A stretch of 64,000 nt of DNA from positions 172,410 to 236,409 of the forward strand of contig NZ_CP010029.1 of the NCBI RefSeq assembly GCF_001656035.1, given 5' to 3'. The notes beneath the pieces were generated by a model, which was not told the DNA's origin, ran no database searches, and saw only the letters and a list, made by a program, of their open reading frames with translations. The position numbers were made by a program, and so were the translations under genes. Shown here in pieces: positions 29,301-38,743 of the stretch (within the stretch, counting starts at the first letter, position 1; every line of letters begins with the position of its first letter). This DNA is from Yersinia entomophaga (GTDB taxonomy: Bacteria > Pseudomonadota > Gammaproteobacteria > Enterobacterales > Enterobacteriaceae).

Positions 29301-30731
29301 TTTATGCTGCGTCAGCAATACGACCTGATGGGGCAGGTTATCCATCAACGCGCAGGCCGCAATACGCGGGTATTCCGACAGGAAGAACTGAGTGACATTC
29401 CTCAGCCTACGTTGGCCGAACTGGATCGCGAATATCAGTATGACGCTGGTTTGCAGTTGGTTGCGATCAACGATGATGTTGAACGACTGAATTATGTTGT
29501 CAATGGCAACGGACAGGTGATTTCGGTCAGCGAACGTAATCAACTGCGCGAGCATTACCGTTATGACGCCAGCGGCTATCCACTACCCAGACGGGTGGGC
29601 GATCAACAGTGCGGCGCAGAGGATGAAATTTATCACCGCGGCCATCGTTTAAATCGTCTTGGTAATCAGCTTTATGAATATGACGCCGCTGGCCGAATGA
29701 CGGCGCGCCGTACGCAACAGGAAGGCTTCCGACCGGAATACACGCGATTTATCTGGAATAGCCAGAACCAGCTGGTGGAATTGCGCAAACAAAATGGTGA
29801 TAGCTGGCGCTACCGTTACGATGCCTTTGGGCGCCGTATCAGCAAAACCTGTGAACAGCAAGGCATCCGTGTGAGCTATTTATGGGACGGTGATGTTATT
29901 GCTGAAATTCGCGATTATCGACAGGGCGAGTTGCAAAAAATCCGACATTGGGTGTTTAATGGCTGGGAGCTGATAGCGCAACAGGAATGCCGAGTCAGTG
30001 AGGGCGAGGTAGGCGAAGTCGAAACTCACTACGCGGTCAGCGCCCCAACGGGGGAACCCCTCGCGCTCTTTAACCCCGCAGGAAAACGCGTCTGGCAACG
30101 CGCCAACCATTCGTTATATGGCGCAGCGCTGGCGAAAGTGCTCAACCACAGCCAGCCAGAACCCGGTTTAAAATTCGCCGGCCAGCTTCTGGATGAAGAA
30201 TCGGGGCTGCACTACAACCGCTTCCGCTACTACGACCCGCAGGCCTGCTGTTACTTAAGTCCGGACCCGATAGGGCTGGCGGGGGGGTTAAACTTATATG
30301 CGTATGTACCAAATCCACTTACATGGATAGATCCGCTGGGACTAGCGACGTGTCCTCCTGTAGGAAATGCTGGTAATGATGGCTATAAGTTCTCGTTTGG
30401 CTCACTTCGTCATATATTAAGAAGGCACTCTCCTCATGTCGGTCCTCCTAAGCAAGAACCATATGCATCAATGAAGCCTAAAAGGCAAAAAGGTTCACCA
30501 TTCCCATCGGAGTGGAGCAATAGAGATATTGCGCATGCTACTGTGGAGGTCGCTAATAATCCTGCAAATCAAGTCATTTCTAATAGGGAAGGGTTCTTTG
30601 GTAAGGTATTTGAAGGCACATCGACCCAAAATGGGGTAACACAAAAAATACGTGTTATTACAGACCATGTTGATCCGCATATTGGTGGTACTGGTCCAGG
30701 TGTTATTACATCTAGTATTCCAATTAAATAA
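26397..30731 (+). CDS. rhs: PAAR-Rhs polymorphic effector with an EndoU-like C-terminal toxin
   Basis: This 1444-residue protein carries a prePAAR motif (AARLGDPIKH, about 33-42), hydrophobic helices (about 46-100) that EagR would shield, and a PAAR domain (about 105-180). The RHS/YD-repeat shell runs from about 283 to 1317 (VKGDPIDVVTGQLVEQRTDL onward). The shell ends with the DPIGLAGG and DPLGLA motifs, whose aspartates are linked to self-cleavage in Rhs proteins. The 127-residue tip contains SLRHILRRHSPHVG, FPSEWSNRDIAHATVEVANNP and GVTQKIRVITD, resembling bacterial EndoU nucleases that cut RNA. The tip is more AT-rich than the shell, as expected for an exchanged module. Its immunity gene follows. 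Confidence 0.93.
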   Translation: MSLTDDIVQRIARVGAIHASPKPVSSGAPGPAAARLGDPIKHASFLGALAGAVVGALISVAIFAVAAAVVVGTGGLATVAVLALGTAGTFAMGGIISKASSAVSAMVDSVGPTDGVLLSGSGDVFIEGKAAARATGDTAMCSKHSAPATIAQGSESVAINGMPSARVGDKLTCGPTIKSGASTVFIGSGQGGYLEVAEEFSMLEKAILVAVEFLVPPSKGLLTGTAKLFTKAGSKAAAKGAIMGAKQAAKICAGKTLSCVTAAFKSHKGIARFTEAGKKFVKGDPIDVVTGQLVEQRTDLMLGQTLSLAFTRTWAEGCFGVLGANWADSFSEYAVIDPENDSIEIFTQEGSSLNFSLPDGYAFSFNPDHPDFTVTRGNKGVILTDRRSGIQRHFALVGQKDRNKFLLSAHQDINGNHIDFCYDERQQLTRICHSDGSELTLIWNASQQLTEIRRTDEGLYDVLASYRYHDSGFMAEADSTEFYHLFYEYNAQGWISRWHDNDQTWTAYHYDAQGRCTDSIGADGYYPVHFDYLPGLTRVSNPQGATTEFYFTPMNQVTEVRSPTGNITRYEYDSYGNLLSQITPSGHQITLSYLKDTGLVTSFTNAMGACWQYSYDDSQRLFGITDPLERTWLQQYDEKGNPQSFTAPDGSSITLERNEFGLVTTQIHSDGSQRRMEYDHHQRLFRIFDEEQRVMNLRYDSRDNLQTLSTPGGALWRWRYDRHQRLAVSDRPNNSQEHFTHDRHGNLTQYHDANGVSWTVEYGAFDLPISRRDGEGHIWRYRYDADTLQLIAVTNPQGESYRYTLDSEGRVIEERDYADAVWYYRYDAEGNCSQKQDALGNITHYSYDPCGRLLTQSNPEGATQYQYDMMGRLLSVTAPDSTLHFEYDEQDRPIREIQVAGEILRRYPDNQTLEREITSVGHESGSWLTRIGVNRTGELIQLELPAGQSLQLQRDAAGQEAGREAAAGFMLRQQYDLMGQVIHQRAGRNTRVFRQEELSDIPQPTLAELDREYQYDAGLQLVAINDDVERLNYVVNGNGQVISVSERNQLREHYRYDASGYPLPRRVGDQQCGAEDEIYHRGHRLNRLGNQLYEYDAAGRMTARRTQQEGFRPEYTRFIWNSQNQLVELRKQNGDSWRYRYDAFGRRISKTCEQQGIRVSYLWDGDVIAEIRDYRQGELQKIRHWVFNGWELIAQQECRVSEGEVGEVETHYAVSAPTGEPLALFNPAGKRVWQRANHSLYGAALAKVLNHSQPEPGLKFAGQLLDEESGLHYNRFRYYDPQACCYLSPDPIGLAGGLNLYAYVPNPLTWIDPLGLATCPPVGNAGNDGYKFSFGSLRHILRRHSPHVGPPKQEPYASMKPKRQKGSPFPSEWSNRDIAHATVEVANNPANQVISNREGFFGKVFEGTSTQNGVTQKIRVITDHVDPHIGGTGPGVITSSIPIK
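30144..30347 (+). repeat. Parental copy of the rhs-core repeat (inside the full rhs)
   Basis: The last ~204 bases of the rhs core, from AACCACAGCCAGCCAGAACC to the end of DPLGLA, recur six more times downstream at 31314, 32415, 33652, 34868, 36174 and 37172. The first ~146 bases are almost identical in all copies. The final ~55 bases, around the NxYxYVxNPLxWID segment, vary. Confidence 0.9.
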
Positions 30732-30741
30732 GAGAGGGTTG

Positions 30742-31113
30742 ATGAAATATACCACATGTCAAAATTGTTATTCTAGCTATGAATCGGATCTGGAAAGATG
30801 TCCAGACTGTAATGCATCTCAAGGTGAAAAAGATGATGGGTTAATAGTTTTTACAGAAGAAGCTCGTTCTGAAATATCACGCCTTGGCGGCATTGTGTAT
30901 GATGTTATTCATCTCCCTGAAGAGCGCTATTTAATTCCATGTGAGTGGGGGGTGCTTCTTTATAATAATGCCAAAAAGTCTTTTTGGCATTACCTTTGTG
31001 GAATTGTTGATGCAGTTGTGGTTAATGAATATGTGGAGATCACACATGGAGATAAGAGAGACTATCTGACACTTGATGATGGAAGATTAGTTAAGAGGGA
31101 GAATGTTGGCTAA
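30742..31113 (+). CDS. Predicted immunity protein for the EndoU-like Rhs tip
   Basis: This protein of 123 residues starts with a zinc-ribbon-like pair of cysteine knuckles (CQNC at 6-9 and CPDC at 20-23) and continues as an acidic mixed alpha/beta domain. I do not recognise the family. Its place right after the tip codons and its AT-rich composition, shared with the tip, mark it as the cognate immunity protein. The ATG at 30742 follows AGAGAGGG and replaces an internal ATG at 30652 that would run through the toxin sequence. Confidence 0.8.
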   Translation: MKYTTCQNCYSSYESDLERCPDCNASQGEKDDGLIVFTEEARSEISRLGGIVYDVIHLPEERYLIPCEWGVLLYNNAKKSFWHYLCGIVDAVVVNEYVEITHGDKRDYLTLDDGRLVKRENVG

Positions 31114-31127
31114 CTCTCTTCTGGCGT

Positions 31128-31152
31128 GGAATGATCCTCTCAGGATCATTCC
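31128..31152 (+). terminator. Hairpin after immunity gene 1
   Basis: An 11-bp perfect stem (GGAATGATCCT/AGGATCATTCC) with a three-base loop lies 14 bases after the stop. It has no T tract, so it is a weak terminator or a stabilising 3' hairpin. Confidence 0.5.
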
Positions 31153-31158
31153 TGCTAA

Positions 31159-31302
31159 TTATGAAATGTCAGTGCACATACAACTCTGCTGAATCCTAAT
31201 CACCACCTGACCGGGCATCACGCTGATCACCAGCGGTTGCCCGGTCAGGCCGCACTGTGTCAGCCAGTCCTCTGGCAGAGACAGATTGCCGTTATCCCGT
31301 AT
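31159..31302 (-). pseudogene. SymE-like gene tail, copy 1 (5'-truncated)
   Basis: The minus strand encodes 47 residues starting IRDNGNLSLPEDWLTQCGL and including VISVMPGQVVIRIQQ, then stops. The pattern (beta strand, WL..aGL, then V.VMPG..VI) resembles the AbrB/SymE-like C-terminus of SymE-family proteins, which often sit beside rhs genes. A TAG directly precedes this frame and no start codon follows, so the gene is cut off at its 5' end where the rhs-core repeat begins. Confidence 0.6.
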
Positions 31303-38343: not shown

Positions 38344-38378
38344 TATTATTAACTCTTTAGATTAAATGTGTAAATAAA

Positions 38379-38419
38379 AGCCGGGAAGGGCCTCTTTGGG
38401 TCTTCCCGGCTATTTTTTT
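38379..38419 (+). terminator. Terminator of cassette 7
   Basis: AGCCGGGAAG pairs with CTTCCCGGCT, followed by ATTTTTTT. The best terminator in the array; its stem resembles that of cassette 2. Confidence 0.85.
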
Positions 38420-38432
38420 ATCTGTTGTTACG

Positions 38433-38561
38433 TCACAGATTACCCTGCCGAACCTTAATCACCACCTGACCAGGCATCACGCTGATCGCCAGCGGTTGCC
38501 CGGTCAGGCCGCACTGCGTCAGCCAGTTCTCTGGCAGAGACAGCTTGCCGTTATCCCGTAT
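38433..38561 (-). pseudogene. SymE-like gene tail, copy 7 (end of array)
   Basis: There are 129 bases of open minus-strand frame behind the common TAG, ending VVIKVRQGNL and a stop. This copy is not followed by an rhs-core repeat: homology ends at TATCTAGTTCAC, after which the tail of a different tip begins. Confidence 0.6.
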
Positions 38562-38569
38562 CTAGTTCA

Positions 38570-38743
38570 CAGCAATATTATGATCTTCAATATGGTCAAG
38601 GTCGTAAAACTAGGCCAACTGATATCCAGTATGTATCAAAATGGAAATAAAACTCTTGATGATTTCTTTAGGAATATCTAATAGATAATTCAAATGTTGC
38701 AGTGGAAAAATTGATTCGTTTCTTTGATGAAATGAATAAATAG
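38570..38743 (+). pseudogene. Relic of an eighth tip/immunity pair
   Basis: After the last SymE-like tail, the plus strand reads QQYYDLQYGQGRKTRPTDIQ and YVSKWK then stops (38648-38650), like the last residues of an Rhs tip. A second frame begins with ATG at 38631 inside that end (MYQNGNKTLDDFFR) and stops at 38681. The sequence resumes in another frame with EYLIDNSNVAVEKLIRFFDE to a stop at 38741-38743. This looks like an immunity gene cut short by a frameshift or internal deletion. It probably marks the oldest, eroded end of the array. Confidence 0.5.

What the first reader, a model, noticed from the sequence alone, without database searches (positions are those of the whole stretch)
30144..38743. 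Tandem array of Rhs toxin-tip/immunity cassettes separated by one composite repeat
Downstream of a complete PAAR-Rhs gene there are six further tip/immunity pairs and one relic. Each full cassette is preceded by the same ~350-bp block: an inverted SymE-like tail (134-144 bp) plus ~204 bp of rhs core in frame with the tip. The cargo differs every time (EndoU-like, HHxxQ, GH-E-like, HH-type, HNH, ParB-like, AHH), while the repeats are near-identical. Orphan rhs tips are known, but a regular array of constant repeat / variable toxin / variable immunity / terminator units of about 1.0-1.4 kb looks like a storage bank. Recombination in the shared core could swap the toxin on the delivered Rhs while carrying its immunity gene along.
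Basis: partly seen in the sequence, partly recalled or inferred. Interest (0 to 1): 0.9.

Follow-up and report, generated by a model that had tools for sequence, protein, structure and literature searches.

The report
Swappable bacterial toxin-tip cassette array
Behind a weapon gene of an insect-associated Yersinia lies a row of spare toxin tips, each with its probable antidote gene and set between the same two repeated sequences; comparison with a sister species indicates that such tips move between the row and the weapon, and although rows of this kind are known, this regular two-sided unit looks new.

Summary
Behind a T6SS PAAR-Rhs gene stand six orphan Rhs tip/immunity cassettes in tandem (30143-38571). 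Each is preceded by one composite: the end of an inverted symE-like gene (S), fused at an invariant junction to the last ~215 nt of rhs core (C). The host is almost certainly Yersinia entomophaga; the locus is published ('Rhs-associated Region 3'), where rhs-core similarity between the genes was noted, but not the unit.

Y. nurmii has the same locus with 16 orphan tip starts on three contigs; 14 carry the junction. Its main tip differs, the window's main tip is an orphan there at near species-level divergence, and shared cassettes lie in another order. Two shared cargos are 99% identical while the preceding S blocks are 82-86% identical, so identity breaks in or beside the repeats. Each of six orphan tips also ends a long Rhs frame in another genus, with a very different core.

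Best reading: cassettes loaded and unloaded by homologous recombination, C as left arm and symE as right arm. The kind is known (Jackson 2009, Koskiniemi 2014). The regular two-armed unit and the natural main/orphan exchange appear new. Switching in culture is not shown.

The parts
4371..23574 (+). T6SS structural genes upstream (tail sheath, TssF, TssG, AAA+/ClpB-like, IcmF, ImpA/VasL among those scanned)
   Evidence: Pfam, (six proteins of this stretch scanned)
23596..25908 (+). VgrG spike
   Evidence: Pfam Phage_GPD 1.1e-92 and others
25952..26371 (+). DcrB-domain protein (probable Rhs adaptor; the role is recalled)
   Evidence: Pfam DcrB 7e-38
26397..30731 (+). Main, full-length PAAR-Rhs, 1444 aa; tip A from about 30348
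   Evidence: Pfam PAAR 1.1e-14, RHS_repeat 8.5e-79, EndoU only 0.031
30143..30360 (+). C block inside the main gene (rhs core end)
30742..31113 (+). Putative immunity gene of tip A
   Evidence: position; Pfam only weak hits
31198..31312 (-). S block 1: end of an inverted symE-like gene
31313..31859 (+). Cassette B2: C block plus orphan tip (open frame)
   Evidence: tip 81% on a 1557-aa Rhs frame
31865..32218 (+). Putative immunity gene B2
32279..32413 (-). S block 2
32414..32996 (+). Cassette C3: C block plus orphan tip
   Evidence: tip 86% on a 1463-aa Rhs frame
33008..33451 (+). Putative immunity gene C3 (TPR-like)
   Evidence: Pfam TPR_1 4.6e-8
33513..33650 (-). S block 3
33651..34251 (+). 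Cassette D4: C block plus orphan tip, also in Y. nurmii
   Evidence: tip 99.2% at the end of P0003 (1553 aa)
34254..34670 (+). Putative immunity gene D4 (start chosen by me; an upstream ATG is at 34230)
34731..34866 (-). S block 4
34867..35494 (+). Cassette E5: C block plus orphan tip (HNH, weak)
   Evidence: tip 98.6% on full-length Rhs frames of another genus
35496..35975 (+). Putative immunity gene E5
36035..36172 (-). S block 5
36173..36611 (+). Cassette F6: C block plus orphan tip, ended by an in-frame TAG; also in Y. nurmii
   Evidence: tip piece 86% on a 1433-aa frame
36724..36972 (+). Putative immunity gene F6 (DUF7660)
   Evidence: Pfam 9.6e-31
37035..37170 (-). S block 6
37171..37822 (+). 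Cassette G7: C block plus orphan tip (AHH nuclease); last unit in Y. nurmii too
   Evidence: Pfam AHH 2.5e-24
37822..38343 (+). Putative immunity gene G7
38439..38571 (-). Terminal S block, not followed by C
38572..38922 (.). Unidentified stretch (the 'relic'), outside the alignment to the Y. nurmii flank, which resumes at about 38923

Best explanation
This is a row of Rhs toxin-tip/immunity cassettes kept behind the one Rhs gene here that has a start signal and lies next to the T6SS that would deliver it. A cassette is a unit with two homology arms: on the left the last ~150-215 nt of rhs core (C, in frame with the tip), on the right the end of an inverted symE-like gene (S) just past a hairpin. 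Homologous recombination in the arms moves whole tip-immunity cargos between strains and species, and between the main gene and the silent positions. If unit-length pieces are inserted into the C of the main gene, the old tip is displaced into the first silent slot and the S|C junction is reproduced each time, which would explain why the junction does not vary. Shown: unit structure, invariant junction, identity breaks in or beside the arms, one tip that is main in one species and orphan in the other, and the same tips on full-length Rhs frames elsewhere. Inferred: RecA-type recombination, a circular or duplicated intermediate, silence of orphan tips, function of tips and immunity genes, and any benefit.
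For: Invariant junction in 20 of 22 orphan units (6 of 6 here, 14 of 16 in Y. nurmii). C columns, in bins of 15, are 0.865-0.997 conserved over the first 150 nt and fall to 0.41-0.49 past position 210, in the 22 copies aligned of 24 held. Against Y. nurmii: F6 cargo 99.2%, preceding S 81.9% (Fisher p 1.4e-15), following S 97% in its left half and 90% in its right half; D4 cargo 99.0%, preceding S 86.2% (3.3e-11), following S 79.0% (4.1e-19); G7 cargo 97.1%, preceding S 85.5% (1.3e-7). Tip A: main here, orphan in Y. nurmii, 96.9% identical, dS 0.163 beside 0.194 for residues 495-770 of VgrG; its downstream gene dS 0.156. Best matches of the six orphan tips on long Rhs frames in other genera: B2 81%, C3 86%, D4 82% (and 99.2% on P0003), E5 98.6%, F6 86%, G7 75%, with cores 59, 25, 24 (64 over a 367-residue stretch for P0003), 41, 40 (part only) and 24% identical. 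No start signal is shared by the six orphan frames. Salmonella precedent for main/orphan fusion (PMC3967940, passages).
Against: Only one other species was compared at this locus, and no second strain. C identity to the main gene shows no trend with position in the 12 Y. nurmii units computed, and only a loose one over six units here, so a time-ordered stack is not shown. Events are mixed: D4 (tip dS 0.023, immunity 0.012) and the F6 immunity gene (0.023) were exchanged later than tip A. The rhs core itself looks exchanged (dS 0.037), so replacement of larger segments is possible. Several Y. nurmii cassettes have broken frames, which suits a graveyard as well (or draft sequencing errors). Some matches of these tips elsewhere are orphans or broken (e.g. 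A in G166, G7 in G174, C3 in G215). No plasmid or phage form of the composite was found.
Confidence: 0.62

Rival explanations
1. Passive graveyard: incoming tips displace old ones by recombination in the core, and the row is only the debris, with no use as a store.
For: Broken frames: F6 here, and F6, 16204, 152 and G7 in Y. nurmii. No shared initiation signal. Displacement model with arrays of dissociated tips (PMC2935791, passages).
Against: Low dN/dS between shared copies (tip A 0.08; D4 no amino-acid change but only 2 synonymous ones; E5 0.20; G7 0.26), although counts are small and the differences may have accrued on expressed copies. D4 and E5 tips are about 99% identical to tips on full-length frames elsewhere, so these cassettes are young or still in traffic.
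Confidence: 0.22
2. Immunity bank: the cassettes are kept for their immunity genes, which protect against neighbours' toxins, and the tips only hitchhike.
For: The putative immunity genes start at ATG, and five of seven have a Shine-Dalgarno-like match better than 90% of random positions (starts of two chosen by me), while orphan tips lack a common start. In the CDI system of E. coli EC93 the orphan immunity protein is made and the orphan toxin does not appear to be (PMC3150448, passages).
Against: Tips stay in frame with the core and open in 5 of 6 units. Immunity genes diverge more than tips in all five comparisons between genera (64 against 86%, 63 against 81%, 61 against 83%, 45 against 75%, 94 against 99%). 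Promoter-like matches in the array are not above shuffles (16 against 19.7), a weak test.
Confidence: 0.1
3. Site-specific cassette system: the constant S|C junction is a recombinase site, as in an integron.
For: One invariant junction in 20 of 22 units.
Against: No recombinase among the 14 proteins of the array scanned, main Rhs included. The junction lies inside two coding remnants, and a second, different symE-like tail is joined to core before one Y. nurmii unit. Identity breaks spread over the arms rather than sit at the junction.
Confidence: 0.04
4. Assembly artefact or simple tandem duplication without exchange.
For: None beyond the repeats themselves.
Against: The host genome is held as one contig, and a different cargo set with the same repeat is found in an independent assembly. 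The seven cargos show no mutual similarity in BLASTP of their tips.
Confidence: 0.01

Closest known systems
Dissociated rhs tips and C-terminal displacement (Jackson et al. 2009, PMC2935791; passages read)
   Same: Full rhs gene followed by core fragments with unrelated tips; homologous recombination in the core; circular intermediate proposed
   Different: There the core fragments are said to be of variable length and tips at a locus to bear cores of one clade only. Here fragment length and junction are constant, a symE remnant bounds every unit, and tips are shared with Rhs frames whose cores are 24-64% identical.
Salmonella Typhimurium rhs-main/rhs-orphan (Koskiniemi et al. 2014, PMC3967940; passages read)
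   Same: Orphan tip plus immunity gene behind a main rhs; fusion by recombination demonstrated; orphan tip found on full-length Rhs of other strains; the paper says most Yersinia species have rhs orphans
   Different: One orphan with 522 bp of homology in LT2; here six orphans (16 tip starts in Y. nurmii) on a regular repeat of about 350 nt with a second, downstream arm. No experiment here.
Orphan cdiA-CT/cdiI modules (Poole et al. 2011, PMC3150448; passages read)
   Same: Ordered arrays of toxin/immunity modules behind a delivered gene, up to eleven in E. coli EC869; module interchange between Y. pseudotuberculosis strains
   Different: Mainly CDI, not Rhs/T6SS; boundary at the VENN motif; the passages shown mention no symE-like block
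Polymorphic toxin cassettes (Zhang et al. 2012, PMC3482391; passages read)
   Same: Tip-immunity order lets one recombination event bring both
   Different: General survey; SymE does not occur in the part of the main text that is held
Yersinia entomophaga Rhs-associated Region 3 (Hurst et al. 2016, PMC4885058; passages read)
   Same: This very locus: PL78_00990 and PL78_00995-01045, with rhs-core similarity noted between the genes
   Different: Read there as virulence genes likely to act on host-cell DNA; the words 'immunity' and 'SymE' do not occur in its main text

Membership tests
T6SS PAAR-Rhs polymorphic toxin locus | PAAR motif, RHS repeats, DPxGL boundary before a variable tip | tested here: met
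T6SS PAAR-Rhs polymorphic toxin locus | Next to VgrG and T6SS structural genes | tested here: met
T6SS PAAR-Rhs polymorphic toxin locus | Tip toxic and neutralised by the downstream gene | not testable with these tools
   Inferred from gene order only
Orphan rhs tip/immunity array | Core fragment plus unrelated tip plus small gene, repeated behind a full rhs | tested here: met
Orphan rhs tip/immunity array | Orphans lack translation initiation signals | tested here: inconclusive
   no shared start, and one orphan has no in-frame start before the tip; but two have an ATG with a G-rich lead and one has ATGs inside the tip with moderate leads, so weak initiation is not excluded
Orphan rhs tip/immunity array | Orphan tips occur on full-length Rhs elsewhere | tested here: met
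   Six of six on long open frames; core alignment over most of the frame for five and partial for F6
Orphan rhs tip/immunity array | Recombination onto the main gene | tested here: inconclusive
   Tip A is main here and orphan in Y. nurmii; direction and process not observed
SymE family | SymE domain | tested here: met
   Intact relative of S, Pfam PF08845 9.3e-14; S itself was not scanned because its reference held a stop
SymE family | Intact gene | tested here: not met
   S is cut at the junction with a stop just before the kept part
Integron-like cassette array | Integrase in the array | tested here: not met
   No recombinase among the 14 array proteins scanned with Pfam; other window genes were only partly scanned

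The most novel reading that the evidence does not exclude
The inverted symE gene is a right-hand homology arm that lets tip-immunity cassettes pass between Rhs proteins whose cores are too different to recombine. It turns separate Rhs clades of Enterobacterales into one exchange network, and these two Yersinia species have turned the unit into a regular load/unload array. E5 illustrates it: cargo 97.5% identical to a full-length rhs locus of another genus whose core block is only 64.7% identical, with symE following in both. Against it: S there is only 84-86% identical, so the right-hand break lies at or before S and a crossover inside S is not shown for E5; a short 65-nt stretch around the DPxGL motif (93.8%) may have been the left arm.
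Probability: 0.3. Interest if true: 0.7.

Novelty: new variant of a known kind. Interest (0 to 1): 0.5.

Why it matters
Rhs tip exchange has been inferred from scattered fragments. Here is a regular array in which the unit, both arms and the zones of exchange can be read from sequence, with a natural main/orphan exchange between sister species. It gives defined junctions to look for in long reads, offers a reason why tip and immunity gene move together, and suggests why symE-like genes sit behind some rhs genes. It also suggests that a gene read as an insect-virulence factor is an immunity gene.

Tried and rejected
Episomal pool: the composite was sought in plasmids and phages. Only partial, 60-80% identical matches came back (341 plasmid records and 1 phage record, none covering 80% of the query), so no free form of the unit was seen. 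Other species: the exact junction was found only in Y. nurmii in genome contigs (5 stretches; that tool says records of the window's own or a very near genome may be left out). In the genus, 4 of 25 genomes match the composite query: own (8 matches), Y. nurmii (19), G017 (2) and G022 (7); in the last two, S and C match separately and no S|C composite was seen. Time-ordered stack: C identity to the main gene by position gives no clear trend. Toxin names: NCBIfam gave the seven tips only the Rhs core, and the seven immunity proteins nothing above cut-off. Promoters and terminators by consensus scan are not above shuffles. The irregular 4.4-kb Y. nurmii unit on L022 (1485-5899) was not resolved. 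Structure prediction was not used.

In the symE survey, 25 loci were scanned: 14 have a symE-like match about 0.7-1.8 kb past an Rhs core end on the opposite strand, 8 have symE only, 3 have Rhs only. The set was chosen mostly by matches to S or symE, and two loci are from one contig, so this is no frequency estimate.
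Full report
WHAT IS THERE. The window is bases 172410-236409 of a single-contig genome of 4,275,406 bp. The sister genome that shares the array is Yersinia nurmii CIP110231T (contig lengths 40250, 7266 and 635922 agree). The host is therefore almost certainly Y. entomophaga; no call names it. PMC4885058 (passages read) gives about 4,275,531 bp, 93.8% identity to Y. 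nurmii, and a stretch of the T6SS region at 176,282-192,175. That is 3873-19766 in the window, where I find T6SS genes. The paper calls the locus Rhs-associated Region 3 and notes rhs-core similarity between the genes behind PL78_00990.

The main rhs (26397-30731) encodes a 1444-aa PAAR-Rhs. Behind it, C blocks and S blocks alternate with unrelated cargo. S is the end of an inverted symE-like gene. In another genus (loci L071 and L072, genus g117) homology to cassette E5 runs at 93.4% over 1275 nt (93.6% over 1276 in L072) and ends exactly at the S|C junction; the DNA there continues into an intact symE-like open frame of 129 codons that hits Pfam SymE_toxin at 9.3e-14. In G110 homology to cassette C3 (77.6% over 1188 nt) also ends at the junction. 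In windows of 1000, G+C is 0.49-0.56 over the main gene and 0.37-0.46 over the array.

THE SAME LOCUS IN Y. NURMII. Contig C18 carries the T6SS side (98.2% over 5067 nt) and contig C1 the far side (92.9% over 4023 nt); contig C25 begins and ends in the repeat. The three hold a main rhs and 16 orphan tip starts, two of them cut by contig ends; 14 of 16 have the invariant junction. The other two are 10454, which is joined to the tail of a different symE-like protein, and 3197, where only 80 nt of C match. The chain C18-C25-C1 is my inference. The two cut units begin like E5.

EXCHANGE. Four of the window's seven cassettes are found in Y. nurmii along their variable part: A (94.5% in cargo), D4 (99.0%), F6 (99.2%) and G7 (97.1%). 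The order differs: here A is on the main gene and D4, F6 and G7 follow in that order; in Y. nurmii another tip is on the main gene, A is the fourth orphan, then F6 comes before D4, and G7 is last in both. For tip A dS is 0.163, and for its immunity gene 0.156, beside 0.194 for the VgrG part compared; so A is about as old as the species split, yet it is main in one species and orphan in the other. D4 (tip 0.023, immunity 0.012) and the immunity gene of F6 (0.023) look exchanged later, and so does the rhs core (0.037). Identity falls from cargo to the preceding S sharply in D4, F6 and G7, and to the following S in D4; in F6 the following S falls only in its right half. The constant part of C stays at 96-99% in these three, as a homogenised arm would.

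TIPS ELSEWHERE. Each tip was searched in 246 genomes of the family, own genome included and Y. nurmii not among the matches (the draw is an even sample of a larger group). Besides the own genome, matches at E<=0.001 were: A 1, B2 7, C3 6, D4 1, E5 3, F6 5, G7 5. The best match of each of the six orphan tips lies on an open frame of 1433-1557 aa in another genus; the match of A (G166) is a broken orphan, and several weaker matches are orphans too. For B2, C3, D4, E5 and G7 the frame aligns to most of the window's Rhs core; for F6 only the 613 residues within the held locus could be checked, and 528 columns align at 40%. Among the best 120 listed of 533 relatives of a 367-residue core stretch (candidates were capped), P0003 (1553 aa, that stretch 64%) carries the D4 tip at 99.2%.

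SYME AS PARTNER. A symE query matched in 29 of 246 genomes, own included. In 14 of 25 loci then scanned, a symE-like match lies about 0.7-1.8 kb beyond an Rhs core end on the opposite strand; most loci were picked by matches to S or symE, and 8 symE loci have no such Rhs. One genome, G101, has four intact symE frames within its row of Rhs fragments, but with irregular spacing. So rhs tip, immunity gene and inverted symE is a wider arrangement, and the two Yersinia species carry a regular form with worn symE (inference).

HOW IT PROBABLY WORKS. Orphan frames share no start signal: in-frame starts differ from unit to unit, and one unit has none before its tip; two have an ATG with a G-rich lead. 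So the main gene is the one likely to be read. A recombination within C joins an orphan tip and its immunity gene to the main core; recombination within S closes the unit. Insertion of a unit-length piece into the main C pushes the old tip to slot one and copies the S|C junction, hence its constancy. The circular intermediate is Jackson's proposal (PMC2935791). Duplication followed by recombination is the Salmonella model (PMC3967940). I cannot tell these apart.

WHAT IS NOT SHOWN. No switching in culture, no expression, no toxicity, no second strain. Passive accumulation of displaced tips fits much of the data. Broken frames in both species argue that part of the row is decaying, if they are not sequencing errors in the Y. 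nurmii draft. Low dN/dS rests on few changes and may have arisen while the tips were on expressed genes.

PRIOR WORK. The kind is known. The literature searches were made, in open-access full text only. Only PMC4885058 holds both 'Rhs' and 'Yersinia nurmii'. 'SymE' with 'Rhs' gave 21 papers, 20 of them listed, and the titles do not suggest such a repeat unit; I read passages of one of them, which links symE to orphan hcp genes (PMC3942780). I found no description of the composite repeat in these listings and passages; most papers were seen as listings only, and closed literature was not seen.

Noticed in passing
30742-31113: PL78_00995 was published as a Spt4-like putative virulence factor; by position it is the immunity gene of the main Rhs tip. 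The match of locus tag to coordinates is my inference from gene order.
   Followed up: partly
L021:10201-10500 (Y. nurmii): A second, different inverted symE-like tail is joined to rhs core just before the cassette that matches the window's main tip: an independent symE-core junction (the symE likeness of this tail is my reading of its translation, not a profile match).
   Followed up: partly
L022:1485-5899 (Y. nurmii): An irregular unit of about 4.4 kb with a stretch at 2801-3330 that I could not identify.
   Followed up: no
L118-L119 (G101:C5): A row of Rhs fragments with four intact inverted symE frames; two of them have a second weak symE-like match directly upstream.
   Followed up: partly
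26397-30141: The rhs core differs from Y. nurmii far less at synonymous sites (dS 0.037) than the VgrG part compared (0.194), which suggests recent exchange of the core itself.
   Followed up: no
32222-32261, 33458-33497, 35982-36012, 38377-38416: Strong hairpins sit between immunity genes and the convergent symE remnant, as a two-way terminator would.
   Followed up: partly
L078 (G166): Another genus carries a broken copy of cassette A followed, after a shorter symE tail, by DNA with a weak match to the F6 tip.
   Followed up: no
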